Source: Gemmatimonadota bacterium (GTDB lineage: Bacteria > Gemmatimonadota > Gemmatimonadetes > Gemmatimonadales > Gemmatimonadaceae). From it: a stretch of 36,026 nt of DNA. This document shows positions 13,798 to 35,874 of the stretch, piece by piece. Where the stretch lies: assembly GCA_025362095.1 (NCBI GenBank), contig JANYIJ010000016.1, positions 1 through 36,026 of the forward strand, in the 5' to 3' direction. Position 1 is the stretch's first letter. Each line of letters opens with the position of its first letter. Under the pieces are notes generated by a model that made no database searches, was not told the DNA's origin, and saw only the letters and a program-made list of their open reading frames with translations. The translations under genes were made by a program, and so were the position numbers.

Positions 13798-13994
13798 GAG
13801 AGGGAGTGTAAGTCGGAGGGATGAGTACGAGAGAGTAGCTTGGAGTATAAGTCGGAGTCGGAGTTGAAGTGTGAGTCCGAGTCGTAGTGGGAGAGGGGGG
13901 TCTGAGTTCGCTCCCACTCCGTCTTCAACTCGAACTCCCACTCAGACTCCGAACTACTTTCTCGTACTCATCGCTCCGACTTACACTCCCTCTC
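13798..13994. repeat. Long imperfect inverted repeat (hairpin A)
   Basis: Left arm 13798-13893 starts GAGAGGGAGTGTAAGTCGGAG-x-GATGAGTACGAGA-x-AGTAG; right arm 13911-13994 is its imperfect reverse complement, with indels toward the loop. Confidence 0.85.
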
Positions 13995-14009
13995 TCACTG
14001 CCGTCATCG

Positions 14010-15746
14010 TCAGGGAGCTATGATGTCGATTCGGTGGTCTGCTCGAACCGTGTATTGTCCCGCCACCGTAATCTCGAGCTGCACGATGTACGATCCCTTC
14101 TTGAGCGTCGAGATATCGAGCTCAATCGCGCGTGGCGACGTGCTCACGCCGCGCGCCGATAGATCCTCCACCGCCACGCTCACCGGCGTGGCCTCGGTCA
14201 CCAGCTTCAGCGCCTTTGCCTGCCGGCGCAAAAAGCCTGATTCCTCCACTTCCTTCACGACCGTCAGCGATACGTTCATCTTCTCGCCGTTTGGATCGGT
14301 GCCGTACGACTCCCAGTAGACGCCGAGTTTTTCGTCGGCGCGCAGGCGCTCGGTGGGCACCGCGTGCGGCGCGGCGTCTTCGACGGTAGCGGGAAAACTG
14401 CCGTACGGCTTGTAGAACAGCAGATCCGAAAGCGTCACCCGCGTGCCCACAGCGAACGGAGGCCGCACGCCGTACCGCGCGCGCGCCACCGCGCGCCGCT
14501 CAGGCGCTGCGACCTCAGCGCTCATGAGCAGCGGGCCCCACGGTGCTTTGGCGATCAGCACGTCGACCGGTTTCGCGTCCTTTACGATCTTCCCGTACGC
14601 GACAGGTTCTGTTCCCGGGGTCACGACGAGCGCCGCGGTGATCTTGGCTCCCGCGAGTTCTGGCATGGTTCGCGAATCGTACGCGAGCACCACAAGCGCG
14701 CTGTCGCCGCGATGAAACACCGCCTTCTGATGTTCGAGCGGCTTCAGCACCGTCGCGTATGCCGGACCGTAGCGACCGATCACGGGCGGCAGCTGCAGCC
14801 GCCAGTTGGCCGAGTCGGAGAGCGACGGTTCGTTGATGACGAATCCTGCAGGGATCATGCGGTAGGCCGGCATCATTTCTTCGCCGGTAATACCGTCGCG
14901 CGACATGGCCCATGCGCGTTCCCATCCGAAACGCAGCATGAGTTCTCTCTCGTCGTCGTCGAAGCCGAACTGGTACTGGCTCGGCCCGTCCTTCAGCAGC
15001 TGCGCCATCGTCATGCGCGAGTACCACTCGGTGCGCGTGTCGTTGCCGGGCATCGAGTAGAGCGTGCGTCCGAGAAACCACACGCGTTCCTCGAACGCGC
15101 GATGCTGCGGATCGCCGCACTGCGAGCGGCGATACTGCTGGCGCGCGTCGTCGTCGATGAGCAGCGACACGTCGTGCCACGCGCACTGGTCACGCGTGAG
15201 CATCTTGCCGATCGCGCTCTCGAACGTCTTCTCCGCGACGGCGTAGTCGCCGAGTTCGTGCTGTGCGAAGCCGATGAGAATCTCGCACCACCATCCGCCC
15301 ACTTTGCAGGCGCGGGCGGCGTCGAGCGCCTCTTTCTGGCGTCCGGCTTCGTCGAGATAGCGCACGCGCTGGCCGGTAATCCAGCGGTCGCCCGGGGTGG
15401 CTTTGTCGAGCGATTCGAGCGTCTCCAGGAAACGATCGCGCGCGTCCGTGATCGTCTTCGGTTCTTTCGGCATCACCGCTTTTTCGTTGTACCAGTAGCA
15501 GAAGCGGCCTACGGTTTCGTCGCAGTTGCCGGGGCGGCCGACGCTCGCGTTCGGCAGGTGCAGACGGCGGTAGTGTTCGAATTCCTGCTGCGCACGGCGC
15601 GCGGCGTCTTCAGATGAACCCGCGGGCGCAGCTGCCGACGCCACATTTCCGGGTTCGCGAAGCACCTGGGCGCGAGCGGGCGCGGCGGCGGCGGCGGCCA
15701 GCGCGACGAAGGTGCAGAGCGTAGTGCGAGAGTTCATGGTCATCAT
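14010..15746 (-). CDS. Hypothetical secreted protein, possibly GWxTD-like
   Basis: Start at 15746 or 15737 gives signal peptide MMTMNSRTTLCTFVALAAAAAAPARAQ; TPR-like repeats, then RTEWYSRMTMAQLL...DDERELMLRFGWERAW; beta-rich C-terminus. The family assignment is weak. Confidence 0.7.
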   Translation of the reverse strand: MMTMNSRTTLCTFVALAAAAAAPARAQVLREPGNVASAAAPAGSSEDAARRAQQEFEHYRRLHLPNASVGRPGNCDETVGRFCYWYNEKAVMPKEPKTITDARDRFLETLESLDKATPGDRWITGQRVRYLDEAGRQKEALDAARACKVGGWWCEILIGFAQHELGDYAVAEKTFESAIGKMLTRDQCAWHDVSLLIDDDARQQYRRSQCGDPQHRAFEERVWFLGRTLYSMPGNDTRTEWYSRMTMAQLLKDGPSQYQFGFDDDERELMLRFGWERAWAMSRDGITGEEMMPAYRMIPAGFVINEPSLSDSANWRLQLPPVIGRYGPAYATVLKPLEHQKAVFHRGDSALVVLAYDSRTMPELAGAKITAALVVTPGTEPVAYGKIVKDAKPVDVLIAKAPWGPLLMSAEVAAPERRAVARARYGVRPPFAVGTRVTLSDLLFYKPYGSFPATVEDAAPHAVPTERLRADEKLGVYWESYGTDPNGEKMNVSLTVVKEVEESGFLRRQAKALKLVTEATPVSVAVEDLSARGVSTSPRAIELDISTLKKGSYIVQLEITVAGQYTVRADHRIDIIAP

Positions 15747-15843
15747 ATACACATCAGTACGATAATAGAGCCGGGTGCGCCTGCGTACTCCAGCACCACA
15801 ACAGCACCTCTCCACGAGGGCGCCCCGCCGCATATTTTCCTGA

Positions 15844-16365
15844 ATGGCATCCATCGTCTTTGAAGGACTTCATGCGGACGCGCAGGCGCCGCATCGCGGA
15901 ACAGCGGGGAGCGCGGGATACGATCTGGCCGCGTATCTCTCATCGCGCACCGTGCGCATCTGGCGCGACGGCGTGTCGCACGAGCGGCCCTGCATCGAAC
16001 ACAATGGCGCATTCACGCTCACACTGGCCGCTGGCGAGAAGGCGCTGGTGCCGCTCGGCTTCAAGGCACGATTGCCGGAGGGATTCGAAGCGCAGATCCG
16101 CCCGCGCTCGGGGACGAGCGTGAAGACGGATCTCGTCATCGCAAACGCGCCCGGAACGGTTGACGCGGATTACGCCGACGAATGGTGCGTGCCTGTGAAG
16201 AACGGCGGATCTGCGCCGCTCGTGATTACGCACGGCGACCGGATCGCGCAGATGATCGTATCGCGGTTCGAGGCGCTCGAGTTCGGTGCGGGCACGGTGG
16301 CGCGTTCCACCGATCGCGCCGGGGGATTCGGCTCGACGGGCACCGGCATGAGAACGGAGCCGTGA
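15844..16365 (+). CDS. dut: dUTP diphosphatase (dUTPase)
   Basis: All five dUTPase motifs: AGSAGYDLAA, RPRSGTS, NAPGTVDADYADEW, GDRIAQMIV, RAGGFGSTG. Confidence 0.93.
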   Translation: MASIVFEGLHADAQAPHRGTAGSAGYDLAAYLSSRTVRIWRDGVSHERPCIEHNGAFTLTLAAGEKALVPLGFKARLPEGFEAQIRPRSGTSVKTDLVIANAPGTVDADYADEWCVPVKNGGSAPLVITHGDRIAQMIVSRFEALEFGAGTVARSTDRAGGFGSTGTGMRTEP

Positions 16366-16372
16366 TCTCCGC

Positions 16373-17158
16373 GTGAACGCGAGCATTCGCCTCAGCGCCT
16401 GCGTCGCGATCTCGCTCGCCACGGCTGCCGGTGCGTGCGGGAGGTTCCCGCAGTTGCGTTCGCCGACGGCCAACCGGCAGCCGATAGAGAGCGCGAAGTC
16501 GTTCGTTGAGAGCGACGGGCATCGCATCCGCGTCGATGTGTATCAGCCCGCGCGCGCCGGCCGAAACCCCGCGGTGATCCTGCTTCACGGTTCGAGCGGG
16601 ATTCACCTGATCAATCCCAGCCTGGTCAATCGCTATGCCGCGGTGCTCGCCGAACAGGGCATCATCTGTTTCGTGGTGCACTACTTCGACGGCACCGGAG
16701 ATTTCATGGCGAGCGATTCGGTGGAGGCGGCGAACTATTTTCACTGGGTCCGCGAGCTGCACGACGCCGTGACGTGGGTTCGGGCGCGCCCGGACGTGAG
16801 GCCGAACCAGATCGCGTTGATGGGGCATTCGCTGGGTGCATGGCTTGCGGTCGGCGCGGCCGCGGCGGATCCGCGCATCGCGCGAATCGTGCTGCTCGGT
16901 TCCGGTCTCGAGCCGTTTCTCGCCGACAGCATCAAGCGTATGCCGCCCTCGCTGATGTTCCACGGCGACAAGGACAACGTGGTTCCGCTCTCCGACGCCG
17001 ACCACCTCGCCGATTTTTTGCGCGCGCACCGCTTCTCGGTGCAGTACAAGATCTATCCTGGCGAAGGCCACCAGTTCGCCGATTCTGCAGCGACCGATAT
17101 GCTGGAGCGCAGTGTTCGCTTTCTCGCCCCGGATCTGAAGCGCGCCCCTGGCAGATAG
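16373..17158 (+). CDS. Alpha/beta hydrolase (dienelactone hydrolase family)
   Basis: PAVILLHGSSGIH, nucleophile elbow GHSLGAW, HGDKDNVVPL, GEGHQF. Confidence 0.88.
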   Translation: MNASIRLSACVAISLATAAGACGRFPQLRSPTANRQPIESAKSFVESDGHRIRVDVYQPARAGRNPAVILLHGSSGIHLINPSLVNRYAAVLAEQGIICFVVHYFDGTGDFMASDSVEAANYFHWVRELHDAVTWVRARPDVRPNQIALMGHSLGAWLAVGAAAADPRIARIVLLGSGLEPFLADSIKRMPPSLMFHGDKDNVVPLSDADHLADFLRAHRFSVQYKIYPGEGHQFADSAATDMLERSVRFLAPDLKRAPGR

Positions 17159-17182
17159 TCACGAACAACTTCGGTTAACCAA

Positions 17183-17216
17183 GAAACACAAAACGTGTTA
17201 ACTCGTTTTGTGTTTC
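17183..17216. terminator. 34-bp near-perfect palindrome containing a stop codon (hairpin B)
   Basis: GAAACACAAAACG-tgttaact-CGTTTTGTGTTTC; the reverse-strand stop TAA lies in the central GTTAAC; flanked by GGTTAACC (17173-17180). Confidence 0.65.
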
Positions 17217-18763
17217 GCTAGTCGCAGTGCTCGCCCAGCGAGCACCCCGGTCGCCTTGCCGCCCTCCACCGCGACCCGCCCGTTCACAAACACCCACCGC
17301 ATCCCCACGGCCAACCGCTCGGGCGCGGCGTACGTCGCCAAATCTCGAATCGTTTTCGGATCGAACACGATCACATCCGCGAACCACCCGACCGCAATCT
17401 TCCCGCGTTCCACGATCTGCATGTCGCGCGCCGGCTGGCCACTGCCCGCCGCGATTGCGCGTTCCATCGATAGCACCGGCCGGTCAAGCACGTAATCGCG
17501 AATCTTCTTGGGAAACGTTCCGAACTTTCGCGGGTGGCCGTCGGATCCGTCTGAGCAGGTCGTGACGAAATCCGCGCGCATGAAGGCGTCCATGTCCTTC
17601 CCGTTCATGTTGAACGACGCGACGCTCTGATCGCCGACCGACCGGATGATCTGCAGCGCGGCTTCCACCGGCTCGACATTCCGCATTTCGCCGATCGCGT
17701 CGAGCCGCCTCCCCTCGAGATCGCGTTGACGCGAGCTCACGATCAGCATTGCGCTCGCGCCGCCGCGGCGCCGGAGATTTTCTCGCATCGCCGCCGCGAG
17801 TTTGGCGTGTATCGCCGGATCCGCGATGCGCGCGAGCAACGAGTCGCGGCCGCCGACTTCCGCCCACCGCGGCACAAGGGCCGACACGAGACTCGTGCCC
17901 GATGCATCGTATGGATATTGGCACGCCGAAACAGTCAGCCCTTCGCGCTGCGCAGCGTGGATCAGCGAGATGACGGTGTCCGCGTCACCGAACACGTCGA
18001 CGCCAAGCGCCTTGATATGCGAGAAGTGAACGGGAATGCGCGCCTCGCGCGAGATGCGCAGCACTTCGCGCACCGACGCGAGCAGGCCGATCGTGTATGA
18101 ACTCTCATCGCGCTGATGCGTGTCGTAGATCCCGCCGTGCGCGGCCGTGACCTTTGCGAGTTCGATCACCTCCTCGGTGCTCGAGTAGCTGCCGGGAGCG
18201 TAGTAGAGTCCAGTCGACATGCCGATCGCGCCCTCGGCCATTCCGCGCTCCACGAGCGCTTTCATCTGCTGGAGCTGTGACGCTGTGGGCGGTCGATCCG
18301 ACATGCCCATCACCTCGCCGCGGACGCTGCCCTGCGGAACGAAGAGCGCGGCATTGGTGCCGATGCCAGTGGAATCCCAGCGCGCGAGCAGCGCGCCGAT
18401 TCCCACCGGCCCGCTGCCGTCGTTGTTCGTGACGACGGTCGTCACGCCTTGCATGAGGTAGTCGACGTTCGCGCGTCGAGTGGCGTTCGAGAGATCACTC
18501 TGCGTGTGCGTGTGCGGGTCGATGAACCCGGGCGCGACGATCAGGCCGGTCGCGTCGATCGTGCGCGCCGCGGAGATGCGCGCGGCTTTCGCATCGCCAA
18601 CGAATACGATGCGGTCCGCGCGAATCGCCACGTCGGCGCGGCGGCCGGCGGCGCCTGAGCCGTCGTACACTGTTCCGCCGATAATGAGAACGTCTGCTGC
18701 TGTCTGCGCCGCTGCGGGGTGCGCCGAAATCGCTAGTGCGAACGCCAGCGCGACTCGTCTCAC
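17198..18763 (-). CDS. N-acyl-D-amino-acid deacylase (D-aminoacylase family amidohydrolase)
   Basis: DVLIIGGTVYDGSG, IVAPGFIDPHTHTQSDL, GVTTVVTNNDGSG, IYDTHQRDES; GTG start at 18763 overlaps the DUF192 stop (GTGA). Confidence 0.9.
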   Translation of the reverse strand: MRRVALAFALAISAHPAAAQTAADVLIIGGTVYDGSGAAGRRADVAIRADRIVFVGDAKAARISAARTIDATGLIVAPGFIDPHTHTQSDLSNATRRANVDYLMQGVTTVVTNNDGSGPVGIGALLARWDSTGIGTNAALFVPQGSVRGEVMGMSDRPPTASQLQQMKALVERGMAEGAIGMSTGLYYAPGSYSSTEEVIELAKVTAAHGGIYDTHQRDESSYTIGLLASVREVLRISREARIPVHFSHIKALGVDVFGDADTVISLIHAAQREGLTVSACQYPYDASGTSLVSALVPRWAEVGGRDSLLARIADPAIHAKLAAAMRENLRRRGGASAMLIVSSRQRDLEGRRLDAIGEMRNVEPVEAALQIIRSVGDQSVASFNMNGKDMDAFMRADFVTTCSDGSDGHPRKFGTFPKKIRDYVLDRPVLSMERAIAAGSGQPARDMQIVERGKIAVGWFADVIVFDPKTIRDLATYAAPERLAVGMRWVFVNGRVAVEGGKATGVLAGRALRLAKHKTS

Positions 18764-19230
18764 GGATCGATGATCGTGCCGGTGGGGAGCGAGAATGAAA
18801 CCGTGGTCCCTGCGGTCACTCCGTGCGACGTCATCCAGCCTTGGTTCGCTTCGAGAGCGTAGCGACATGAGCTCGTCGGCATGTGGAATACCAGCGACTG
18901 CGCGGCCATCTCATCAACATTGATCACCTTCATGTTCGCGTCGATGAACGCGATCGACAGTGGCGTCGGTGTGTTCTTCATCCAGAACGCGCAGTTCGAC
19001 GGTGTGTGATCGGTGCCGAACACGAATAGCATCCCGGAATTCGCGCCGAGCGACATGACGTTCATGAGCCCGGTGTCACGCGCGGCGCTGGTCGATGCGA
19101 TCTTCGCCGAGATCGTGCCACCGGAGAATACGACGTTGATGGTCGTGCTCACGGGAGTCACCGGTGAGTCGCTCTTGCCGCTGCAAGCGACGGCGGCGAC
19201 AAGCATCGAAACTGAGAGAAGTCGTTTCAC
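18760..19230 (-). CDS. DUF192 family lipoprotein
   Basis: Signal/lipobox VKRLLSVSMLVAAVACSG; DUF192 signatures ARDTGLMNVMSLGANSGMLFVF...CAFWMKNTPTPLSIAFID...YALEANQGW. Confidence 0.85.
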   Translation of the reverse strand: MKRLLSVSMLVAAVACSGKSDSPVTPVSTTINVVFSGGTISAKIASTSAARDTGLMNVMSLGANSGMLFVFGTDHTPSNCAFWMKNTPTPLSIAFIDANMKVINVDEMAAQSLVFHMPTSSCRYALEANQGWMTSHGVTAGTTVSFSLPTGTIIDP

Positions 19231-19240
19231 AGAACGAAAG

Positions 19241-20500: not shown

Positions 20501-20529
20501 CCGAAAAGAATAGACAGGAGAACCGAAAC

Positions 20530-20623
20530 GACGGCAAATGGCGAGTCGTTAATGGCAACGGCGGCGAGTGGGTTGATGCTCCCACTCGCCGCTGTTGCTA
20601 ATAACGACTCGCCATTCGCTGTC
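20530..20623. repeat. Long imperfect inverted repeat abutting a stop codon (hairpin D)
   Basis: 43-nt arms 20530-20572 and 20581-20623, 38/43 complementary, 8-nt loop TTGATGCT; right edge abuts the OmpA stop (TTA, 20624-20626). Confidence 0.9.
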
Positions 20624-21691
20624 TTACGGCAGCTCGATAATCACCACGCGACGGTTGAGCGCCCGTCCGGCCGGATTGTCCTTGCCGTTGATCTCGTTGT
20701 CGGCAACCGGCTGCGATTCGCCGAAGCTCCTGGTGCTGACGCGAGCGATGTTGACGCCCTGCGTCCCGAGGTACGCCTTCACCGACTCAGCGCGGCGCAT
20801 GCCGAGCTTCATGTTGTATTCGTCCGAACCCTTGCTGTCGGTGTTGCCCTGGATTTCCACGTTCACGTCGTTGTGGTCCTTCAGGTAGCGTACCGCAACC
20901 TGTAGCGTGTCCTTCGCGCCCTTGGTCAGCGTGCTCTTGTCGAACTCGAACAGCACGGCCTTGAGCGTGAAGAGTTCACGTGCACGGGCAGGTGCCGGTG
21001 CGGGCGGTGGTGTCGGAGCGGGAGCCGGAGCTACGACGACTGGTGCCGGCGGCGGTGGCGGCGGCGGTGCCGGAGCGGGAGCAGGCGCCGGAGCGGGCGG
21101 CACGTATTCAGGAGCCGGCGCGACGTACTCAGGCTTGCACGGGCTGTTGCGCGCCTTGTTTCCGAGGAACCAGCTGACGCCGAGTCGAACATTGAACGTT
21201 TGCGTTGCGGCGCCGGGCTTCGGAGTCTGGTCGGACGGGTCCTTGAAATCTTCGACGATGTCAGCGCGCCACGACCACCTCGGGCTCATGCACTGACGAA
21301 TGCCGATCGTGGCGTTCCAGCCGCCGTCGTACGCATTGTGGGTGGTGTCGCCCTTGTAGTTGGTCCCCGTGAAGCCGCCGCCAATGAGCAAAAACGTCTT
21401 CCGCGAGAGCGGCCAGTTGTAGATCAGGTCGACACGGTTGTTCCAGACGTTGATCGAGCTCTGGGTGAGCGTGTGCGTCGGGATGACAGACGCGTCATAC
21501 TCAAGCGCGATTCTCGGAAGCAGGAACACGCCGAACCGGGCGCCTCCGCCGAAGTTGCTCTTGATATGCGTAGTGTCTGCAAAATTGCTGAACTGCCCGA
21601 AGATGCCTGCTTCGACTGCGATCCGCTGCTGCGCTTGCAGCGAACTCGCGGCAAACGTCAAAAGCGCTGCTGAAACCAAGTAACGTCGCAT
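20624..21691 (-). CDS. OmpA family outer membrane protein with Pro/Ala-rich linker
   Basis: Signal peptide MRRYLVSAALLTFAASSLQA, beta-barrel region, PAPAPAPAPPPPPPPAP linker, OmpA C-terminal domain (VEIQGNTDSKGSDEYNMKLGMRRAESVKAYL...NRRVVI). Confidence 0.92.
   Translation of the reverse strand: MRRYLVSAALLTFAASSLQAQQRIAVEAGIFGQFSNFADTTHIKSNFGGGARFGVFLLPRIALEYDASVIPTHTLTQSSINVWNNRVDLIYNWPLSRKTFLLIGGGFTGTNYKGDTTHNAYDGGWNATIGIRQCMSPRWSWRADIVEDFKDPSDQTPKPGAATQTFNVRLGVSWFLGNKARNSPCKPEYVAPAPEYVPPAPAPAPAPAPPPPPPPAPVVVAPAPAPTPPPAPAPARARELFTLKAVLFEFDKSTLTKGAKDTLQVAVRYLKDHNDVNVEIQGNTDSKGSDEYNMKLGMRRAESVKAYLGTQGVNIARVSTRSFGESQPVADNEINGKDNPAGRALNRRVVIIELP
20980..21135. repeat. Low-complexity GC-rich tract encoding the Pro/Ala linker
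   Basis: Degenerate GGAGCGGGAGC/GGCGGTGGC repeats, in frame with (AP)n/(P)n on the minus strand. Confidence 0.7.
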
Positions 21692-21791
21692 GCTGTGTGA
21701 CTCCTTGTGGTGGACGGAGCGCCTTCCGTGATGTGCGGCGATCCATCGTGCGGTTTGCTGTGAATGAGGGAAACCCACACTGGATAAACTG

Positions 21792-21815
21792 CCCAATTGG
21801 GGTGCAAGGTTGCAC
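21792..21815. promoter_or_regulatory. Two adjacent palindromes in a divergent promoter region
   Basis: CCCAATTGGG (21792-21801) immediately followed by GTGCAA-gg-TTGCAC (21802-21815), between ompA-like (-) and acetoacetyl-CoA synthetase (+). Confidence 0.35.
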
Positions 21816-21848
21816 TGACCGAAAGGAGTAGCCCGGGATGGCACTTTA

Positions 21849-23873
21849 GTGGTAGAACTGTCGCGTTTCGGCCTCCCGGCGGTAAAATTCCCGATGCTTC
21901 GTTTCCTGGAGGCGGTTCGCGCGCTCCACCCGTCTACGCCCACAATCGGCGCGCCGTACGCGGCGTGGCATGCGTGGTCGTGCGAACATCCGGATGAGTT
22001 TTGGGCGTCGGTCTGGCGATTCACCGGCATCGTCGCGGAAGAGCATCCGGGACGCGATCCATGGGATCAAGTCGTGCACGGCTTCGACCGCATGGCGCCG
22101 CCCGATCCCGAGCTCGGTCCGCTCTGGTTTCGCGGCGCGCGACTGAATTTCGCGGAGAATCTTCTGCGCAGACGCGGCGATTCGGCGGCGATAATTTTCC
22201 GAGACGAACGCGGGTCACGCCGGGAGATCAGCCACGATGCGCTCGTCGCCGGGGTCGCGCGCATCGCGGCCGCGCTGCGCGCGAGCGGAGTTCGCCCCGG
22301 CGATCGCATTGCGGGATTTCTTCCGAACATTCCGGAAGCGGTGATCGCGATGCTCGCGTGCGCGTCGTGCGGCGCGCTCTGGTCGTCGTGCTCGCCGGAC
22401 TTCGGCACGGCGGGCGTTCTCGACCGGTTTGGACAGATCGAGCCGCGTGTGCTGTTCGTCGCCGATGGCTATCGATACGCGGGAAAGGAGATCGACTCGC
22501 TCGGCCGCGCGCGCGAGATCGTCGCAGCCGTTCCGTCGATCGAGCGCGTGGTGGTGATTCCCTTTCTGCGCGACACAATACGCGATGCCGCGCTGGCCGA
22601 TATGCGCGGCGCGGAATCGTGGGAGCGGTTTGGAGCGCGGGGCGATGGCGCGCCGCTCCAGTTCGAACGCCTGCCGTTCGACCACCCGCTGTACATCATG
22701 TACTCGTCCGGCACGACGGGACCCCCGAAGTGCATGGTGCACGGAGCCGGCGGCACGCTGATTCAGCACCTGAAAGAGCATCAGCTGCACACGGGCATCG
22801 CCCCGGGTGATCGCGTTTTCTATTTCACGACGTGCGGCTGGATGATGTGGAACTGGCTCGTGAGCGCGCTCGCGAGCGGCGCGACGATCGTGCTGTACGA
22901 CGGTTCACCGATGCCGCAAGGCTCGCATGCCGCGCTTTGGACGATGGCCGCCGAGGAGCGCGTGAACGTGTTCGGCACGAGCGCCAAGTTCCTCGCGACT
23001 TCGGAGAAGCACGGGTTAAAGCCGGCGTTGACGCACGATTTGCGCGCGCTGCGCATGATTCTCTCAACGGGCAGTCCGCTCGCCGCGCACGGCTACGACT
23101 ATGTTGAGCGCGACGTGAAACCGGGTGTGCACGTCGCGAGCATCTCCGGCGGCACCGACATCATCTCCTGTTTCGCGCTCGGCAACCCGATGCTGCCGGT
23201 ACATCGCGGCGAGCTGCAATGCCGGGGACTCGGCATGGCCGTGGAGGTGTTCGACGAGCACGCGAAATCGATGCGGCTGACCGCCGGCGAGCTCGTCTGC
23301 ACAAAGCCGTTTCCGTCGATGCCGGTCTCATTCTGGAACGATTCGAACCGCGCGAAATACAATGCGGCGTACTTCCAGCTCTTTCCGGACGTCTGGGGCC
23401 ACGGTGATTGGGCGGAGATCACGGAGCACGACGGCGTGATCATCTATGGCCGCAGCGACGCGACACTCAACCCGGGCGGTGTTCGCATAGGGACGGCCGA
23501 GATTTACCGGCAGGTCGAGCAGCTCGATGAGGTGCTGGAGAGCGTCGTCGTCGCGCAGCAGGTGCACACACCAATCGGCGACGACGAGCGCGTGGTGCTG
23601 TTCGTGCGGTTGCAACCGGGTTTGACTCTGGGCGATGGGTTGCGCGAGAGAGTCCGAACGCTCGTGCGCGCGAGCTGTTCACCGCACCATGTTCCACAGG
23701 TCATTATTCAGGTAGATGACATTCCACGCACGATCAGTGGCAAGATCACGGAACTCGCGGTTCGTGACGTGATCCACGGCCGCACAGTCAAGAACATCGA
23801 CGCGCTCGCCAATCCGGCCGCGCTCGAATTATTTCGCAACCTCCCCGAACTCGACCACTCGCAAATTCCATGA
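21849..23873 (+). CDS. Acetoacetyl-CoA synthetase (acetoacetate-CoA ligase)
   Basis: Full-length AMP-forming synthetase: N-terminal WAWHAWSCEHPDEFW-like region, MYSSGTTGPPKCMVHGAGG, YFTTCGWMMWNW, SGGTDIISCF, GRSDATLNPGGVRIGTAEIY. GTG start at 21849 or ATG at 21894. Confidence 0.9.
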   Translation: MVELSRFGLPAVKFPMLRFLEAVRALHPSTPTIGAPYAAWHAWSCEHPDEFWASVWRFTGIVAEEHPGRDPWDQVVHGFDRMAPPDPELGPLWFRGARLNFAENLLRRRGDSAAIIFRDERGSRREISHDALVAGVARIAAALRASGVRPGDRIAGFLPNIPEAVIAMLACASCGALWSSCSPDFGTAGVLDRFGQIEPRVLFVADGYRYAGKEIDSLGRAREIVAAVPSIERVVVIPFLRDTIRDAALADMRGAESWERFGARGDGAPLQFERLPFDHPLYIMYSSGTTGPPKCMVHGAGGTLIQHLKEHQLHTGIAPGDRVFYFTTCGWMMWNWLVSALASGATIVLYDGSPMPQGSHAALWTMAAEERVNVFGTSAKFLATSEKHGLKPALTHDLRALRMILSTGSPLAAHGYDYVERDVKPGVHVASISGGTDIISCFALGNPMLPVHRGELQCRGLGMAVEVFDEHAKSMRLTAGELVCTKPFPSMPVSFWNDSNRAKYNAAYFQLFPDVWGHGDWAEITEHDGVIIYGRSDATLNPGGVRIGTAEIYRQVEQLDEVLESVVVAQQVHTPIGDDERVVLFVRLQPGLTLGDGLRERVRTLVRASCSPHHVPQVIIQVDDIPRTISGKITELAVRDVIHGRTVKNIDALANPAALELFRNLPELDHSQIP

Positions 23874-24844: not shown

Positions 24845-24854
24845 CCCGGCTATA

Positions 24855-24883
24855 TTTCCCCCAAGGCACTCCACAGGGGGAAA
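24855..24883 (+). promoter_or_regulatory. Candidate Shine-Dalgarno-sequestering hairpin upstream of phenylalanine hydroxylase
   Basis: TTTCCCCC (24855-24862) - 13 nt - GGGGGAAA (24876-24883), directly abutting ATG at 24884; the 3' arm overlaps the purine-rich RBS. Confidence 0.4.
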
Positions 24884-25828: not shown

Positions 25829-25837
25829 GATAACCCC

Positions 25838-26962
25838 ATGACGACCATCGCGTCCCCTGCGCCATCAGTCGCGCACGACACGTTCCCGATCAACGGCACC
25901 GACTACATCGAGTTCTGGGTCGGCAACGCCAAGCAGAGCGCGATGTTCTATCGCGCCGCGTTCGGATTCGAACTGCTCGCCTATCGCGGGCCGGAGACCG
26001 GTGTTCGCGATCGCGCGAGTTATCTGCTCCAGCAGGATAAAATCCGTTTCGTGCTCACGTCGCCGGTCGGGCCTGAAGGGCCGATCGCCGACCATATTCG
26101 ACTGCACGGCGACGGCGTGCGCGATCTCGCGTTCTGGGTGGACGACGCGCGCACCGCGCACAAGCTGGCCGTCGAGCGCGGCGCGCGGTCCGTGCAGGAG
26201 CCCACGGTCACGAAGGACGCCGACGGTGAGGTGGTCATCGCCGCGATCGCGACCTACGGCGACACGATTCACTCGATCGTCGAGCGCAGGAACTATCACG
26301 GCCGGTTCCTGCCGGGGTTCGTGCCGAAGTCATCGCCGTTCAAGACGGTCCCGACGGGACTCAAGTATGTCGACCACTGTGTCGGAAACGTCGAGCTCGG
26401 CAAGATGAACGAATGGGTCGAGTTCTATTCCCGCGTGCTCGGCTTTTACAATCTGCTCTCGTTCGACGACAAAGACATCTCGACAGAATACTCATCACTC
26501 ATGTCCAAGGTGATGTCGAACGGAAACGGCCGCATCAAATTTCCGATCAACGAGCCCGCGGCCGGCAAAAAGAAATCGCAGATCGATGAGTATCTCGATT
26601 TTTATCGCGGCCCCGGCGTGCAGCACATCGCGATGGCGACGGACGACATCGTGAAGACCGTGCGCGACATGATGAACCGGGGCGTCGAGTTCCTCTCTGT
26701 GCCGCATTCCTACTACGAGGGCGCGAAGGCGCGCGTCGGAAAGATCGACGAGAGCTTCTCGGCGCTCGAAGAACTCGGCGTGCTCGTGGACCGTGACGAC
26801 GAAGGGTACCTGCTGCAGATCTTCTCGAAGCCCGTGCAGGACCGTCCCACGCTGTTCTACGAAATCATCCAGCGCAAAGGTGCGAAGAGCTTCGGCAAGG
26901 GCAACTTTAGGGCGCTGTTCGAGTCGATCGAGCGCGAGCAGGGTCTGCGAGGGAACCTGTAA
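25838..26962 (+). CDS. hpd: 4-hydroxyphenylpyruvate dioxygenase
   Basis: Two-domain vicinal oxygen chelate protein: TGLKYVDHCVGNVELGKMNEWVEFYSRVLGF, GPGVQHIAMATDDIVKTV, YLLQIFSKPVQDRPTLFYEIIQRKGAKSFGKGNFRALFESIEREQ. Confidence 0.96.
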   Translation: MTTIASPAPSVAHDTFPINGTDYIEFWVGNAKQSAMFYRAAFGFELLAYRGPETGVRDRASYLLQQDKIRFVLTSPVGPEGPIADHIRLHGDGVRDLAFWVDDARTAHKLAVERGARSVQEPTVTKDADGEVVIAAIATYGDTIHSIVERRNYHGRFLPGFVPKSSPFKTVPTGLKYVDHCVGNVELGKMNEWVEFYSRVLGFYNLLSFDDKDISTEYSSLMSKVMSNGNGRIKFPINEPAAGKKKSQIDEYLDFYRGPGVQHIAMATDDIVKTVRDMMNRGVEFLSVPHSYYEGAKARVGKIDESFSALEELGVLVDRDDEGYLLQIFSKPVQDRPTLFYEIIQRKGAKSFGKGNFRALFESIEREQGLRGNL

Positions 26963-28146
26963 TGCCCGTCTATCACACGCTGGGAAAAATTCCCCGTAAG
27001 CGGCACATCATTTTTCGCAGGCCTGATGGGAAACTGTACGCCGAACAGCTTGTGGGGAACGAAGGATTTACCGGTCCCTCGTCACTGTTGTATCACGTGC
27101 ACCCGCCCACGACGGTGAAATCGACGCGGCGCATTCGCGACGTGATATACGAGGCGGATCCCGATCAGACGCTCAAGCACCGGCACTTCCGCACGGCGCG
27201 CCTCGCGCGCGGCGGCAGCCCAACGCTCGACCGCACGCCTATTCTGTTCAACGACGACGTCGCGATGCTCTACTCGGAGCCCGACAAGCAGGACGAGCAC
27301 TTCTATCGCAATGCGCAGGGCGATGAAGTCGTGTACGTCGCGGAAGGCGAGGGAACACTCGAGACGCAGTTCGGAAATATCCCGATCGTGCCGGGTGATT
27401 ATCTCGTGATACATCGGGGGATTCTTCACCGCTATGTGTTCACGAAACCGGCGAAACTCCTGATCATGGAGAGTCGCGGCTACGTGCGCACGCCGTCGCG
27501 GTACCGGAATGACTACGGCCAGATCGTGGAGGGCGCGCCGTACAGCGAGCGCGATTTTAAGGTGCCGCGCGATCTCGTGACGCGCGATGAAAAAGGCGAC
27601 TTCCAGATTATCGTGAAGCAGTACAACGGGCTGAATGAGTTCATCCTCGATCATCACCCGTGCGATGTGATCGGCTGGGACGGCATGTTCTATCCGTGGG
27701 CGTTCAACATCAACGATTTTGAACCGATCGTCGGACGCGTGCACCAGCCGCCGCCGGTGCACCAGACGTTCCAGGGCGATGGCTTCGTGATTTGCTCGTT
27801 CTGCCCGCGGCCATTCGACTTCCATCCCGAAGCGATTCCCGCGCCGTACAATCACAGCAACGTGGATTCCGACGAAGTGATTTTTTATGCGTCGAGTGAA
27901 TTCATGAGCAGAAAGGGAATCGAGTACGGCTCCATCACGCATCACCCGGATGGCATCCCGCACGGCCCGCATCCCGGACGAGCGGAAGCGTCGATCGGCG
28001 CGAAGGGTACAGACGAACTCGCCGTGATGATGGATTCGTTCAGGCCGCTGAAGGTCGCGAAGGTGATGCTGCCCGTGGAAGATGCCGGGTATCAGACGTC
28101 GTGGTTCAACGCCTCCGGTGAAGGATTCTCGCCGCCGACGAGCTGA
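26962..28146 (+). CDS. hmgA: Homogentisate 1,2-dioxygenase
   Basis: GDEVVYVAEGEGTLETQFGNIPIVPGDYLVIHRGILHRY, FHPEAIPAPYNHSNVDSDEVIFY, HHPDGIPHGPHPG; TAATG overlap with hpd. Confidence 0.94.
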   Translation: MPVYHTLGKIPRKRHIIFRRPDGKLYAEQLVGNEGFTGPSSLLYHVHPPTTVKSTRRIRDVIYEADPDQTLKHRHFRTARLARGGSPTLDRTPILFNDDVAMLYSEPDKQDEHFYRNAQGDEVVYVAEGEGTLETQFGNIPIVPGDYLVIHRGILHRYVFTKPAKLLIMESRGYVRTPSRYRNDYGQIVEGAPYSERDFKVPRDLVTRDEKGDFQIIVKQYNGLNEFILDHHPCDVIGWDGMFYPWAFNINDFEPIVGRVHQPPPVHQTFQGDGFVICSFCPRPFDFHPEAIPAPYNHSNVDSDEVIFYASSEFMSRKGIEYGSITHHPDGIPHGPHPGRAEASIGAKGTDELAVMMDSFRPLKVAKVMLPVEDAGYQTSWFNASGEGFSPPTS

Positions 28147-28236
28147 AACTGCGAGTTAACCCGTTTCGTGTTGGTTGGTTAACTGAAGTCACTTTGGTTA
28201 ACCAACCAACGAGAAACAGCTTAACGCATTTCCCAT
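28147..28236. repeat. Imperfect inverted repeat (hairpin C)
   Basis: Core GTTGGTTGGTTAAC (28170-28183) / GTTAACCAACCAAC (28197-28210), perfect 14 bp; imperfect extension on both sides (GTTAACCCGTTTC / GAGAAACAGCTTAAC). Confidence 0.85.
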
Positions 28237-28250
28237 CCGTTTAAACGGAT
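28235..28250. promoter_or_regulatory. Perfect 16-bp palindrome 1 nt upstream of an aminotransferase ATG
   Basis: ATCCGTTTAAACGGAT, then C and ATG at 28252. Confidence 0.5.
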
Positions 28251-28251
28251 C

Positions 28252-30745: not shown

Positions 30746-31673
30746 CCGCGAGCGTGAGCGCGCCTTTGGGCGCCACTCGCGACACGCGTGTATCGCATGC
30801 GATTCCCCGCGAGTCGTACTCTGCGCGTACCGCGTCGGCGATCTTCGCCGCGGTTGAATCGCTGTCCGTGATATAGAAGCTGGTCGGGCCGCCTCCGGAG
30901 ATGGAGCCGGCAAGCGCGCCTGCCTTGAGCGCCGCCGCTTTCGCCTCCACGAATCCGGGCAGCAGCACCGCGCGGGCAGGTTCCGCGATCTGATCGTCCA
31001 GCGCGCGGCCGAGCAGCGCCATGTCGCCGCTCGCGAACGCCGCGACCATCGCGGCGACGTTGGCCATTGCTGCGGTCACCGATGCACGATCGATGAAGCT
31101 CGGCAGCACTTCACGCGCGGCGGCCGTGTCGAGCCGCTGCGCAGGATGCGCGAGCACCACACGCAGCTCGGCGGGCCACGGGAGCGAGACGATATCGACA
31201 GGATCGAGCGATCGCACGAGAATCACGCCGCCGAACAGCGCCGACGCGAGGTTGTCGCCGTGGCGTCCCGAGAGCTGCGATTCCGCGACGAGCGCGCACT
31301 CGAAAAGCGCGATCGCGTCGAGAGGATTTCCGAGAAGCCGGTTCACCGCCACGGCGCTGGCGACAGCCGACGCCGCGCTGCCGCCCTGTCCGCCGGAAAT
31401 CGGGAGTCCTTTCTCGAGCGTGAGGCGAACGCCATCGCGTAGTGTGCCCGCGCGCTCGAGCACGGCGTTCGCCGCGATGCCCGCCGCATTTTTATCGGCG
31501 GCGCGCGGCAAGTCCGCGTGACCGGCGCCGGACATCGTGACGCCTGGTTCGTCGGCCCGTTCGGCGATGACACGGTCGCCCGGACCGGTGACGGCCATGC
31601 CGAGCACGTCGAGTCCTGGTCCGATATTTCCCACTCCGCCGGGAGCGAGCGCGGCCGCGCGTTCGAGTCGCAT
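30726..31673 (-). CDS. thrB: Homoserine kinase (GHMP family)
   Basis: APGGVGNIGPGLDVLGMAV, PISGGQGGSAASAVASAVAVNRLL, SISGGGPTSFYI; operonic with thrC. Confidence 0.9.
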   Translation of the reverse strand: MRLERAAALAPGGVGNIGPGLDVLGMAVTGPGDRVIAERADEPGVTMSGAGHADLPRAADKNAAGIAANAVLERAGTLRDGVRLTLEKGLPISGGQGGSAASAVASAVAVNRLLGNPLDAIALFECALVAESQLSGRHGDNLASALFGGVILVRSLDPVDIVSLPWPAELRVVLAHPAQRLDTAAAREVLPSFIDRASVTAAMANVAAMVAAFASGDMALLGRALDDQIAEPARAVLLPGFVEAKAAALKAGALAGSISGGGPTSFYITDSDSTAAKIADAVRAEYDSRGIACDTRVSRVAPKGALTLADDATSA

Positions 31674-31737
31674 GCGTCAGGTTAGCATGCGCGCACTTTG
31701 CTGTCCATTGAGTGACGCGACAATTACATTCCGGCCC

Positions 31738-33051
31738 GTGAAACTCCAGAAAACGCTGACGAGCACCGCGCTCGTGTTCGTGATGTTTTTCAACGTCTCC
31801 GGAGGCGCGTACGGCGTCGAGGGGATTGCCGGCACGGTCGGACCCGGACTCGCGCTGCTGGCGCTGATCATCGTCCCGCTCGTGTGGTCGCTTCCCGAGA
31901 CGCTGATCATCGGCGAGCTCGCGAGCATGCTTCCCGAGGAGGGCGGCTATTACCGATGGGTGCGCCGCGCCTTTGGCGAGTTCTGGGCATTTCAAAACGG
32001 CTGGGCGACCTGGCTCTACTCCCTGGTCGACATGGCGCTCTATCCGGTGCTGTTCAACGAATACCTGAAATGGTTTTTCCCGCAGATCGGGAGCGGCAGT
32101 GCGTGGATCGTTTCGCTCGCGGTGATCTGGGGCGCGGCGGCGATTAATTTGCGCGGAGCGCTGCCCGTCGGCAGGGTTTCGATCTGGGCGGGATCGTTCG
32201 TGCTCTTCGCGTTCTTGGCGCTCGCAGTCTTCGCGATTCCGCACGCGCAGCATGCGCCGTGGAAACCGTTTGCAAATCCGGGAACGACGGCGGGTGCGGG
32301 ATTCGCCGTCGCACTTTCCATTGTCTTGTGGAATTACATCGGGTGGGACAACGCGAGCACGGTGCAGGGCGAAGTGATCGACGCATCGCGGAGCTATCCG
32401 CGCGCGCTGATGGTGGCGCTGCCGCTGGTGACACTCTCGTATTTCGTGCCGTTGCTTCCCGCGCTCGCCGCGAGCGATGGCAGCGCCTGGAAGGATGGAT
32501 CGTGGCCGGCGATCGCGATGCAGGTAACGGGCGGGGCGGGGCCGTTCATCGCCTCGATGATCGCGTTCGGCGGGCTGGTGAGCGCGCTCGCGCTATTCAA
32601 TGCGCTGCTGCTCTCGTACTCACGAATTCCGCTCGCGATGGCCGTGGATGGCCTTCTGCCGAAAGCGCTCGCGCAGACGGACTCGCGTGGGACGCCACGG
32701 CGTGCTGTGCTCCTGTCGGCTGTATTCTACTCTGTGTTCGTGCTCGTTCCGTTCGGAAAACTCGTCGTGGCCGATGTGCTGCTGTACGCGATCGCGCTGA
32801 TGCTCGAGTTTGGTGCGCTGATTGCGCTCAGGAGACGGGAGCCGGAGTTGCGCGGCGTGTTTCGAATTCCGACCGGCACGGGTGGTGTGATTCTGCTGGC
32901 GGCGCTGCCGGCGATCGTGCTTGGCGTTGATATTTGGCTGGCGATTCGGGATGGGGATATCGCGCGGCCATCGTTAATCGGGGCGGGGATCGCGCTCGCG
33001 GTTGGGCCGGCGTTCTACTGGGGAATGAGAATCAAAGCGCCCCGGGGTTGA
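31738..33051 (+). CDS. APC superfamily amino acid permease
   Basis: About 12 TM pattern; FFNVSGGAYGVEGIAGTVGPGLALLALIIVPLVWSLPETLIIGELASMLPEEGGYYRWVRRAFG. GTG start at 31738 (ORF track extends upstream). Confidence 0.9.
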   Translation: MKLQKTLTSTALVFVMFFNVSGGAYGVEGIAGTVGPGLALLALIIVPLVWSLPETLIIGELASMLPEEGGYYRWVRRAFGEFWAFQNGWATWLYSLVDMALYPVLFNEYLKWFFPQIGSGSAWIVSLAVIWGAAAINLRGALPVGRVSIWAGSFVLFAFLALAVFAIPHAQHAPWKPFANPGTTAGAGFAVALSIVLWNYIGWDNASTVQGEVIDASRSYPRALMVALPLVTLSYFVPLLPALAASDGSAWKDGSWPAIAMQVTGGAGPFIASMIAFGGLVSALALFNALLLSYSRIPLAMAVDGLLPKALAQTDSRGTPRRAVLLSAVFYSVFVLVPFGKLVVADVLLYAIALMLEFGALIALRRREPELRGVFRIPTGTGGVILLAALPAIVLGVDIWLAIRDGDIARPSLIGAGIALAVGPAFYWGMRIKAPRG

Positions 33052-33076
33052 GAGTCTGCCCTCCCCGAGTTTAGAA

Positions 33077-33149
33077 CTGCAATCCCGCTGCTTCAGTGCC
33101 CCACTGAGCACTCCGAAGTGAGTGGGGAACTGAAGCAGTGAGATTGTAG
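33077..33149. repeat. Imperfect inverted repeat (hairpin F)
   Basis: Arms 33077-33105 CTGCAATCCCGCTGCTTCAGTGCCCCACT and 33121-33149 AGTGGGGAACTGAAGCAGTGAGATTGTAG, 25/29 complementary, 15-nt loop. Confidence 0.85.
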
Positions 33150-33171
33150 CGCCGAGCGGGGGGATATCAGA

Positions 33172-33216
33172 TTGCTCAACTTGCTCAACTTGCTCAACTT
33201 GGTCAACTCGCTCAAC
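33172..33216. repeat. 9-bp tandem repeat, 5 copies
   Basis: TTGCTCAAC x3, TTGGTCAAC, TCGCTCAAC; last copy touches the stop codon of the minus-strand permease. Confidence 0.9.
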
Positions 33217-35648
33217 TACTCGCGCCTAAGTGCAACCACTGGATCCATCCCCGACGCCCTCCTCGACGGAATCCAAATAGCCATCGCCGCCACTCCGATC
33301 AGCACCACCGGCACCAGCGCGAACGTGAGCACGTCGAATCCTCCACTGCCGTAGAGCTGACTGCTCGCGAGCCTTGCCGCGCCCGCCGCGAGCACAAGAC
33401 CGATCCCCAACCCGAACGCGACCAGTCCAAGCCCCTGACGCATGAGCAGGCGAATCACATCGCCGCGCCCCGCGCCGATCGCCATTCGGATTCCTATCTC
33501 TCTCGTCCGTTGCGCCACGGCGTAGGCCATCACGCCATAAATCCCGATTGCCGCTAGCCCGAGTCCCAGCAGTCCGAAAATCCCGAGCACGGCGCCGGTG
33601 AGTCGCGCGGGAAGCAGCGCGATGCCGAGATGCGTTTCCATCGTGCGAATTCCTGAGACGGGCATCTGCGCGTCGATCGCGGCAATCTCCGCTCGAAGCG
33701 TCGGCGCGAACGTGATCGGATCTCCCGACGTGCGAATCTGGACCCAGCGGCTGGCGTCGAAATGCTGCTCAAGCGAGAGGTACATGAATGATGTCGGATC
33801 TTCACCGAGCCGGTCGTACTTTCCCGTGGGCACGACGCCGATGACCGTGTGATCGCTTCCCCCCGTGCGCACGATGCGGCCGAGCGGATCCTGTCCCGGC
33901 CAGAAGTGATCGGCGAAGCGCTGGTTGATGACGATGACTTTCTGCGCTGTCGAATCGTCGCGCGCCTCAATGCCGCGTCCTTTCAGGATGGAAATGCCCA
34001 TCGTCTCGAAATAGGCGGGGCTGATCTTATTGAGCTCGACGCTCATCATCTCGTTCGGTGACGCCGTGTAGCCGGGAATTGTGAGGCTCCAGTCGTTTTC
34101 ACCGAGCCCGAGCGGGATCTGGTCCGATGTCGAGATGTGTTTCACTGCGGGCATTGCGGAGAGCCGCTCCGTGAGGCGGCGATAAAATTCACCCGTCCGC
34201 GCGCGATCGTAGCCTTGAAGCGACGGATCGAGATTTGCAATTAGGAGGTGGCTGCTGTCGAATCCTTTGTCGATCGTCGTCGCCGCCTGGAGATTGTGCA
34301 GGAACAGTCCCGCGCAGACGAGCAGCACGATCGAGAGCGCCATCTGCGCCACGACGAGCCCGCTGCTCGCGCGAGCGCGCGACCGGCCAGCGGGCGCCTC
34401 TCCCTTCAGCGCTGGAACAAGCGAGGGGCGCGTCGCCTGGAGCGCGGGGGCGATCCCGAACAGCAGGCCGGTGAAGACGGACGCGCCGAGCGTGAAGAAC
34501 AGCACCGACGGGCTCAGCCGCATGTCCGCGCTGAACGTGATATCGAACGGCAGATCGATTCGATTGGCAAGGCTGATCGCCCACGACGCAATGGCGAGCG
34601 ACGCGATTCCGGATGCGGCGGCGAAGAACAGGCTCTCCGTGAGCAACTGGCGCAGCAGCACCGAACGCCGCGCCCCGAGGCTCAGGCGAATAGCCATTTC
34701 ACGCGCACGGTCGCGCGCTCGGGCGAGAAACAGGTTCGCGACATTGACACATGCGATGAGCAGGAGTATCGCCACAACGGCCATCACCACCGAGGTGAGT
34801 CCGACTTCAGTGCTGCGGAACATCGGATGGACTCCAGCCTCGGACTGTGGAACGAGCGTGATGCCGTTCTGCTTGTAATCCTCGGGGTACACTCCGCGAA
34901 GCTCTGTGACCAGCGCGTCCATCCGTGCGCGCGCGGCCTTCGCCGCGATTCCGGGTTTCAGTCGCGCGATCACATTCATCGAATTGTTGTCGCGATTCTC
35001 GTATCCCTTCACGTTGCCGGGGCGCGCATCGCTCCATTGCGTGAGCGGGATCCAAAGCGCCGGCTGGACGATCGGAATCAGTCCGCGAAAGGCGGCCGGC
35101 GCGATGCCGACAATCGTATACGCGCGGCCGTTCAGGACGACCTGCCTGCCGACAATCCCAGTGTCGCCGCCGAACATCGTCCGCCAGGCGGGTTCACTCA
35201 GCACTGCCACCGGGTGCGCGTCGCGGCCGATGTCTTCCTCGGGGAGAAACAGTCGTCCCTTGACCGGGGTGACGCCGAGTATCGAGAAGAAGTTCGCCGA
35301 GACCATCTGGCCGAACACGCGCTGCGGGCGGGCGGATGTCGTGATGCTGAATTGCTCGAAAGACCACACGGCGACATCGGTGAACACGTCTTTCGTGCGC
35401 TCGCGAACACTCTGAAAGTGGGGCACCGAGCTCGATCCGTACTTCATGTCGCCGGGCCACGAGCGATAGAGTTGCACGATCTCGTTTGGCGCGCGAACTC
35501 CCGGCAGTGGCCGCAGCAGCAGCGCATCGACCGCGGAGAAGACCGCGGTATTCAGTCCGATTCCGAGTGCGAGCGTGGTGACGACAATGGCGGTGAAGCC
35601 GGGGTTCTTAATGAAGAGACGCCAGGCGAGTCGCAGGTCACGCCGCAT
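33216..35648 (-). CDS. ADOP-type (MacB/FtsX-like) ABC transporter permease
   Basis: MRRDLRLAWRLFIKNPGFTAIVVTTLALGIGLNTAVFSAVDALLLRPLPG, MacB-PCD periplasmic domain, duplicated FtsX TM domains, C-terminal REIGIRMAIGAGRGDVIRLLMRQGL ... DPVVALRRE. Confidence 0.92.
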   Translation of the reverse strand: MRRDLRLAWRLFIKNPGFTAIVVTTLALGIGLNTAVFSAVDALLLRPLPGVRAPNEIVQLYRSWPGDMKYGSSSVPHFQSVRERTKDVFTDVAVWSFEQFSITTSARPQRVFGQMVSANFFSILGVTPVKGRLFLPEEDIGRDAHPVAVLSEPAWRTMFGGDTGIVGRQVVLNGRAYTIVGIAPAAFRGLIPIVQPALWIPLTQWSDARPGNVKGYENRDNNSMNVIARLKPGIAAKAARARMDALVTELRGVYPEDYKQNGITLVPQSEAGVHPMFRSTEVGLTSVVMAVVAILLLIACVNVANLFLARARDRAREMAIRLSLGARRSVLLRQLLTESLFFAAASGIASLAIASWAISLANRIDLPFDITFSADMRLSPSVLFFTLGASVFTGLLFGIAPALQATRPSLVPALKGEAPAGRSRARASSGLVVAQMALSIVLLVCAGLFLHNLQAATTIDKGFDSSHLLIANLDPSLQGYDRARTGEFYRRLTERLSAMPAVKHISTSDQIPLGLGENDWSLTIPGYTASPNEMMSVELNKISPAYFETMGISILKGRGIEARDDSTAQKVIVINQRFADHFWPGQDPLGRIVRTGGSDHTVIGVVPTGKYDRLGEDPTSFMYLSLEQHFDASRWVQIRTSGDPITFAPTLRAEIAAIDAQMPVSGIRTMETHLGIALLPARLTGAVLGIFGLLGLGLAAIGIYGVMAYAVAQRTREIGIRMAIGAGRGDVIRLLMRQGLGLVAFGLGIGLVLAAGAARLASSQLYGSGGFDVLTFALVPVVLIGVAAMAIWIPSRRASGMDPVVALRRE

Positions 35649-35730
35649 AGTCTTGCTCGGTTGGGGAGAGACCGGTCTATGCTGGGACAGTACGCGGCGG
35701 GCCTACGGTTTGTTTCAGCGCAATCCTTAC

Positions 35731-35874
35731 AACGAGTGAACTGTTAACCGTCGGTCGGTTAACCACGGTACAAAATCAGCCCGATCACGAACCGATCGAA
35801 ATGCTTCGAAACCCGGGCTGATCATTTCACTTTTGTTTACCGATCAACTGTTAGTCGTTAACAGTTCACTCGTT
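35731..35874. repeat. Long imperfect inverted repeat (hairpin E), outer arm reaching into a stop codon
   Basis: Perfect 18-bp outer arms AACGAGTGAACTGTTAAC (35731-35748) / GTTAACAGTTCACTCGTT (35857-35874); inner 9-bp ATCAGCCCG (35775-35783) / CGGGCTGAT (35814-35822). Confidence 0.9.

What the first reader, a model, noticed from the sequence alone, without database searches (positions are those of the whole stretch)
13798..35874. A recurrent class of long intergenic hairpins tied to stop codons, unrelated in primary sequence
Six post-stop gaps each contain a long, imperfect self-complementary element: A 13798-13994, B 17183-17216, C 28147-28236, D 20530-20623, F 33077-33149, E 35731-35874. The arms are not a shared repeat family; each element is complementary only to itself. 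The architecture is shared: position downstream of a stop, frequent contact with the stop codon (D abuts it, E and B include it), arms of roughly 13 to 90 nt with scattered mismatches, and no clear U-tract. Four are in tandem gaps and two are in convergent gaps. By eye I saw none in the seven divergent gaps. Known classes (intrinsic terminators, REP/BIME, MITE) do not fit well: the elements are too long, lack a U-tract, and have no common sequence. Possible roles are 3'-end or terminator structures, mRNA-stabilising 3' stems, RNase III substrates, or supercoil-absorbing cruciforms.
Basis: partly seen in the sequence, partly recalled or inferred. Interest (0 to 1): 0.75.

Follow-up and report, generated by a model that had tools for sequence, protein, structure and literature searches.

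The report
IVP-linked dispersed palindromes after genes
The six hairpins belong to several families of palindromic DNA elements scattered behind genes in a group of uncultured Gemmatimonadota, and some copies carry the gene for a protein of unknown function (IVP/S23) otherwise known from insertions in ribosomal RNA, which gives that protein a likely role in spreading or maintaining selfish hairpin DNA.

Summary
The six inverted repeats are real at the stated coordinates and far above shuffled controls. The claim that they are unrelated, non-repeat hairpins is wrong: A, C, D, E and F are copies of dispersed palindrome families in this genome (about 8-19 places each); B is a decayed C arm. Four related species carry such families at about 5-10 per 100 kb. 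They fill about half of convergent gaps, lie a median 9.5 nt after stop codons in tandem gaps, and replace each other at the same orthologous site. Divergent gaps are not exempt (11% per gap, the same as tandem). Some copies hold an ORF between the arms; where one was identified it is PF05635, the '23S rRNA intervening sequence protein' (IVP/S23). All ten readable IVP genes of the four species sit between inverted arms, eight in arms matching ORF-less families; 2 of 260 control genes do. Arms of different families share a 7-nt period (z = 22). IVP genes on plasmids of other phyla mostly have inverted heptad arms too, one inside a 23S rRNA gene. No reverse transcriptase was found in the four genomes, and no RAYT in the three searched. 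Best reading: IVS-like hairpin elements outside rRNA, with ORF-less copies spread in trans. Mobility by IVP is inferred, not shown.

The parts
13798..13994 (.). Element A: palindrome of the A family (period 6), tandem gap between 12742-13752(-) and 14010-15854(-)
   Evidence: about 8 places in the genome; gap empty in G011, larger palindrome in G014; an IVP gene lies between A arms at G000:C96 by coordinates
17150..17216 (.). Element B: remnant of a C-type arm (17168-17205) plus a small 34-nt palindrome 17183-17216, convergent gap
   Evidence: 86% over 35 nt to element C, 82% over 38 nt to another C-type copy; the same gap in G011 holds a 90-nt palindrome
20530..20623 (.). Element D: palindrome of the D family abutting the stop of 20624-22030(-), tandem gap
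   Evidence: four congeners have a short hairpin in this gap instead
28147..28236 (.). Element C: C-type palindrome of the C/E superfamily, tandem gap after 26962-28146(+)
   Evidence: four species have four different types here, seven more distant congeners none
33055..33171 (.). Element F (fuller extent than reported): F family, convergent gap between 31537-33051(+) and 33216-35648(-)
   Evidence: arms match those around an IVP gene in L252 (G000:C189)
35731..35874 (.). Element E: E-type palindrome, tandem gap, touching the stop of the next (-) gene
   Evidence: E arms enclose an IVP gene in L208 and, by coordinates, at G000:C37

Best explanation
The six hairpins are copies or remnants of dispersed palindromic elements of the same kind as the intervening sequences (IVSs) of bacterial 23S rRNA: two long inverted arms, usually of degenerate 7-nt repeats, with or without an ORF for the IVP/S23 four-helix-bundle protein (PF05635) between them. 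Here they live outside rRNA, next to stop codons. Several arm families have one or a few IVP-coding copies and several to dozens of ORF-less copies. Most likely the IVP recognises the arms of its own family and helps them to be copied to new places, the ORF-less palindromes being carried in trans, as REPINs are thought to be by RAYTs. They persist where a transcript can end in a hairpin without harm, between convergent genes and right behind stops, and can take the place of an ordinary terminator. Shown: multi-copy families, position, same-site turnover, IVP genes inside matching arms, shared period of 7 in most families, the same anatomy in a true rRNA IVS. Inferred: that IVP drives mobility, the copying mechanism, and terminator substitution.
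For: Multi-copy families. IVP counts 10, 7, 10, 11 in the four element-rich species against 0-4 in other congeners, 0 in G015 which has no long palindromes. All ten readable IVP loci have inverted flanks (nine by script, one by inspection) against 2 of 260 control genes, p = 3e-14; arms of eight match ORF-less families. IVPs with the same arm type are nearest relatives: 69% and 71%, others 23-59%. Arms share period 7, z = 22.5. IVP-bearing elements also abut stops. Eight of ten plasmid IVP genes of other phyla have inverted arms with period 7, z = 10.4, one inside a 23S rRNA gene. Coxiella's IVS carries heptameric repeats (PMC4990558). No RVT_1 in the four genomes, no Y1 transposase in G000, G009, G011.
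Against: No movement has been observed and no clean insertion junction or target duplication was defined. IVP has no known enzymatic activity. D and most small families have no IVP copy in the DNA read. C96 and C37 rest on coordinates only. A has period 6, and F no clear period. Single-copy IVPs in seven congeners have no arms, so the gene can exist without them.
Confidence: 0.7

Rival explanations
1. Host-selected 3'-end structures: the palindromes are terminators or 3' mRNA stems kept because they end or protect transcripts; the repeat families are only the raw material and the IVP genes are passengers.
For: Convergent enrichment and closeness to stops. 14 of 19 E-type cores have an adjacent T or A tract. 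Short hairpins are rarer in convergent gaps of the element-rich species (17/132 vs 11/25 in G015, p = 0.0007), as if replaced.
Against: No G-U excess on the sense strand; outer arms do not covary within elements; families differ at the same site and are absent from congeners with the same genes; does not explain why IVP genes sit in matching arms.
Confidence: 0.15
2. MITEs of an ordinary DDE transposase, or REPINs of a RAYT: the arms are transposase ends and the IVP gene is a passenger.
For: Inverted ends, size and copy number fit (Delihas review PMC2229807; REPIN paper PMC3116915).
Against: No Y1 transposase in G000, G009, G011 (G014 was not among the genomes of that search); the only ORF identified between arms is IVP; one transposase would not explain many unrelated arm sequences with a common 7-nt period.
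Confidence: 0.08
3. No mobile element: palindromes arise in place by replication template switching and repeat slippage.
For: Template switching can make and repair stems (PMC8794818); heptads suggest slippage; E-type cores keep complementarity while diverging.
Against: The same arm sequences recur at many loci and in several species, and outer arms do not covary within elements. It may still act on cores and on heptad number.
Confidence: 0.05

Closest known systems
Intervening sequences (IVS) of bacterial 23S rRNA with the IVP/S23 ORF (Coxiella, Leptospira, Xanthomonas, Brucella; PMC4990558)
   Same: Inverted arms forming one stem, IVP ORF between them (PF05635), heptameric repeats in Coxiella and in the Azospirillum IVS read here; a mobility role of the ORF has been proposed there as a hypothesis
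   Different: Located between protein genes next to stop codons, in many families and with many ORF-less copies; no rRNA around the clade's IVP loci
REPIN/RAYT systems (PMC3116915)
   Same: Non-autonomous palindromes, extragenic, several families per genome, each apparently tied to its own protein gene
   Different: Protein is IVP, not a Y1 transposase; arms are 40-100 nt and heptad-built rather than 20-40 nt REPs; the gene lies between the arms
Bacterial MITE-like repeats (Correia/NEMIS, ERIC, RUP, RPE; review PMC2229807)
   Same: 100-200 bp, inverted ends, long stem-loops in RNA, mostly intergenic
   Different: No transposase or target duplication identified; strong 3'-end and convergent-gap preference; same-site replacement between families
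Intergenic heptanucleotide repeats: cyanobacterial STRRs (from memory), Xanthomonas/Nostoc GGGAATC (PMC4692102), TAACTGA of Beggiatoaceae (PMC4679880)
   Same: 7-nt units, intergenic; in Xanthomonas on average 28 nt from the 5' neighbouring ORF against 160 nt to the downstream one; Nostoc plasmid palindromes here are made of such units
   Different: Reported as direct repeats; no link to IVP or to inverted arm pairs in the passages read. TAACTGA repeats lie mostly before start codons

Membership tests
23S rRNA IVS-type element | Inverted arms forming one long stem | tested here: met
23S rRNA IVS-type element | IVP/S23 ORF (PF05635) between the arms in coding copies | tested here: met
   the six window copies themselves are ORF-less
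23S rRNA IVS-type element | Located inside 23S (or 16S) rRNA | tested here: not met
   window copies are intergenic (one search finds no rRNA); Rfam finds no rRNA around the clade's IVP genes tested; so not filed as an rRNA IVS, only as the same plan elsewhere
23S rRNA IVS-type element | Excised by RNase III without religation | not testable with these tools
   needs RNA data
REPIN/RAYT | Cognate Y1 transposase (RAYT, PF01797) in the genome | tested here: not met
   0 matches in G000, G009, G011; G014 not searched; controls ring; genomes 90-98% complete
REPIN/RAYT | Dispersed non-autonomous inverted pairs in extragenic space | tested here: met
Transposase-type MITE | Ends shared with a transposase-coding element | tested here: inconclusive
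   the ORF identified between matching arms is IVP, not a transposase; no dedicated search for all transposase families was made
Transposase-type MITE | Target-site duplication | tested here: inconclusive
   flanks and a few orthologous gaps inspected; no clear duplication, exact ends uncertain
Retroelement with its own reverse transcriptase | Reverse transcriptase gene (PF00078) in the genome | tested here: not met
   0 matches in G000, G009, G011, G014
Intrinsic terminator | GC-rich stem followed by a U-tract | tested here: inconclusive
   14 of 19 long E-type cores have T4+ or A4+ beside the core; A, C, D and F lack it by eye

The most novel reading that the evidence does not exclude
IVP/S23 four-helix-bundle proteins are the mobility factors of a separate class of selfish hairpin elements whose arms are built of 7-nt repeats; rRNA intervening sequences, the intergenic palindromes described here and the heptanucleotide repeats of cyanobacteria and xanthomonads are all forms of it, each arm family recognised by its own IVP.
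Probability: 0.4. Interest if true: 0.92.

Novelty: new variant of a known kind. Interest (0 to 1): 0.8.

Why it matters
The function of the IVP/S23 protein and the origin of rRNA intervening sequences have been open for decades (PMC4990558 calls both unclear), and the origin of intergenic heptanucleotide repeats is likewise unexplained. Finding the same protein gene inside several unrelated arm families, each with its own ORF-less palindromes, ties these puzzles together and predicts a protein-arm specificity that can be tested with purified protein. It would also add a non-transposase route by which bacteria acquire hairpins at the ends of their genes.

Tried and rejected
Wrong strand given for L252, corrected. 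Two script errors. Insertion into terminator loops, suggested by a few complementary flanks: not supported for E, because flanks match only as family consensus. RNA-pairing selection through G-U excess: no signal. RAYT/IS200 and RT routes: genes absent where searched. attC-like integron sites: considered from memory, the arm motifs do not fit the core-site consensus, not pursued. Rfam: nothing in the window. Literature: no paper found that links IVP to dispersed palindromes; preprints and most subscription journals are not held. Assembly artefact: rejected, since families recur in four MAGs, three of them traced to separate studies. No structure prediction was run, since solved relatives exist (2gsc, 2rld).

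Full report
OBSERVATION. The six inverted repeats exist as described and fold far more stably than dinucleotide shuffles (z from -5 to -14). Shuffled gaps of the same genome give none at the threshold used. Element F is longer than stated (33055-33171).

NOT UNIQUE SEQUENCES. The window is contig C119 of a 2.99-Mb draft genome (G000). Searching that genome with each element returns many other places, on both strands as expected for palindromes: A about 8, D about 12, F about 9, C about 11, E about 19; these counts merge the listed hits by eye. C and E fall in one cluster of 36 related elements; hybrids with E-type and C-type parts occur (L179, L107). B is a decayed C-type arm (86% over 35 nt). 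E also has dozens of hits in species G014 and a few in G011.

GENOME-SCALE SURVEY. In samples of four species (G000, G014, G011, G009; 1.8 Mb) palindromes of score >=50 occur at 7.7-10.2 per 100 kb, and at 5.5 in G000 contigs chosen without regard to hits. A congener, G015, has only ordinary 33-47 nt hairpins. 149 elements of at least 46 nt fall into 15 multi-copy families and 30 singletons. Gap classes pooled: convergent 53/101, tandem 62/553, divergent 18/161. Convergent gaps are strongly enriched (p = 4e-13 against divergent); tandem and divergent gaps are alike per gap. Within tandem gaps, elements sit a median 9.5 nt from the upstream stop and 93.5 nt from the next start (58 of 62 nearer the stop, p = 3e-9). 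Gene calls are from a simple hexamer caller written here, so single starts may be off.

SAME SITE, DIFFERENT FAMILY. The window is syntenic with G014, G011 and G009. At gap E all four species have a palindrome at the same position next to the same stop: E-type in G000 and G014, two other types in G011 and G009. At gap C the four species have four different types, while seven more distant congeners have no element. At gap F, G011 and G014 share a family unlike that of G000, and G009 keeps one arm only. Gap A is empty in G011. At gap D four congeners have a short hairpin where G000 has element D. In one convergent gap G011 has a 168-nt palindrome where the stops of G000 and G014 are 2-3 nt apart.

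WHAT THE ARMS SHOW. In 19 long E-type elements the outer arms are no more alike within an element than between elements (0.843 vs 0.844 after permutation), whereas the core is (0.758 vs 0.631, 0 of 2000 permutations). So outer arms behave like family ends, and the core is kept paired or copied as a unit. On the sense strand of tandem elements G-U and A-C mismatches are equal (194, 188), which gives no sign of RNA-level pairing selection. Arms of families without common sequence share a 7-nt period: lag-7 identity 0.395 against 0.283 in shuffles (z = 22.5), lag 14 z = 13.9; ordinary gaps 0.274. The A family has period 6, and F shows no clear period.

THE ORF INSIDE. One E-type element in G014 (L208) has its arms about 570 nt apart with a 141-aa ORF between them. 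It is PF05635, 23S rRNA intervening sequence protein (E = 4e-31), with solved relatives 2gsc and 2rld. PF05635 counts are 10, 7, 10 and 11 in G000, G009, G011 and G014, and 0-4 in other congeners. Ten loci of these species could be read: nine have inverted flanks by script, and L228 has (AGCCGGA)n arms by inspection; controls 2 of 260. The arms match ORF-less families: E (L208), F (L252), fam3, which is the family at gap F of G011 and G014 (L238), fam5 (L253, L231), fam10 (L254), fam9 (L228), fam31 (L049). L227 matches none in the sample, and L114 matches mainly the palindrome next to it. Two more IVP genes lie between A arms (C96) and E arms (C37) by coordinates. IVPs with the same or similar arm type are nearest relatives (69%, 71%; others 23-59%). 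IVP-bearing elements sit next to stops too. Seven congeners outside the group have a single-locus IVP without arms.

BEYOND THE CLADE. Of ten IVP genes read from plasmids (nine cyanobacterial, one Azospirillum), eight have inverted arms scoring at least 28, with strong period 7 (lag-7 identity 0.73 vs 0.36, z = 10.4). The Azospirillum gene is inside a 23S rRNA gene, i.e. a true IVS, and Coxiella's IVS has heptamers too (PMC4990558). A 50-kb stretch of a Nostoc plasmid holds five further heptad palindromes without an IVP gene, two of them 3 and 9 nt after stops and one in a convergent gap. In Xanthomonas, which has an IVP (2gsc), GGGAATC repeats average 28 nt from the 5' neighbouring ORF (PMC4692102); whether its IVP gene has such arms could not be tested.

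MECHANISM. Shown: families, place, turnover, IVP in matching arms, period, and the same plan as an rRNA IVS. Inferred: IVP binds its own arms and promotes their spread; ORF-less copies use it in trans; 3' ends are favoured because a hairpin is harmless or useful there. No RT was found in the four genomes, and no RAYT in the three searched. Insertion into hairpin loops was tested through flank complementarity for E and not supported. Some elements probably act as terminators (E cores with T/A tracts; fewer short hairpins where long ones are common, p = 0.0007), but this is not shown.

VERDICT. It is a new setting of the IVS/IVP kind of element, with a testable role for a protein of unknown function.

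Noticed in passing
L256, L258, L261 (cyanobacterial plasmids): IVP genes lie between cas6 and cas4 of type I-D CRISPR operons and between cas10 and cmr3 of a type III-B operon, i.e. right behind cas genes.
   Followed up: partly
L234-L237, L241, L242, L244: Seven congeners outside the element-rich group have an IVP gene of one closely related type without inverted arms; possibly a settled, host-adapted form.
   Followed up: partly
window 33172-33215: Tandem 9-nt repeats (TTGCTCAAC)n directly after element F, reaching the stop of 33216-35648(-).
   Followed up: no
window 24845-24883: A seventh window gap: G011, G014 and G009 have a palindrome of AGCCGGA heptads between the stop and a TATATT box; the window has only CCCGGCTATATT there.
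   Followed up: partly
L042 15147-15486, L137 2663-2830, L075 9121-9233: Palindromes containing variants of 'CCACGGATTTCACGGA', a further family present in G000, G011 and G014.
   Followed up: no
L266 33933-34046: A heptad palindrome lies inside the annotated mobF gene of a Nostoc plasmid, so such elements may also enter coding sequence.
   Followed up: no
L136 9926-9990: In G011 the last part of the cupin gene next to gap C is a run of N in the assembly, just beside a palindrome; contigs of these MAGs often end at or near elements.
   Followed up: no
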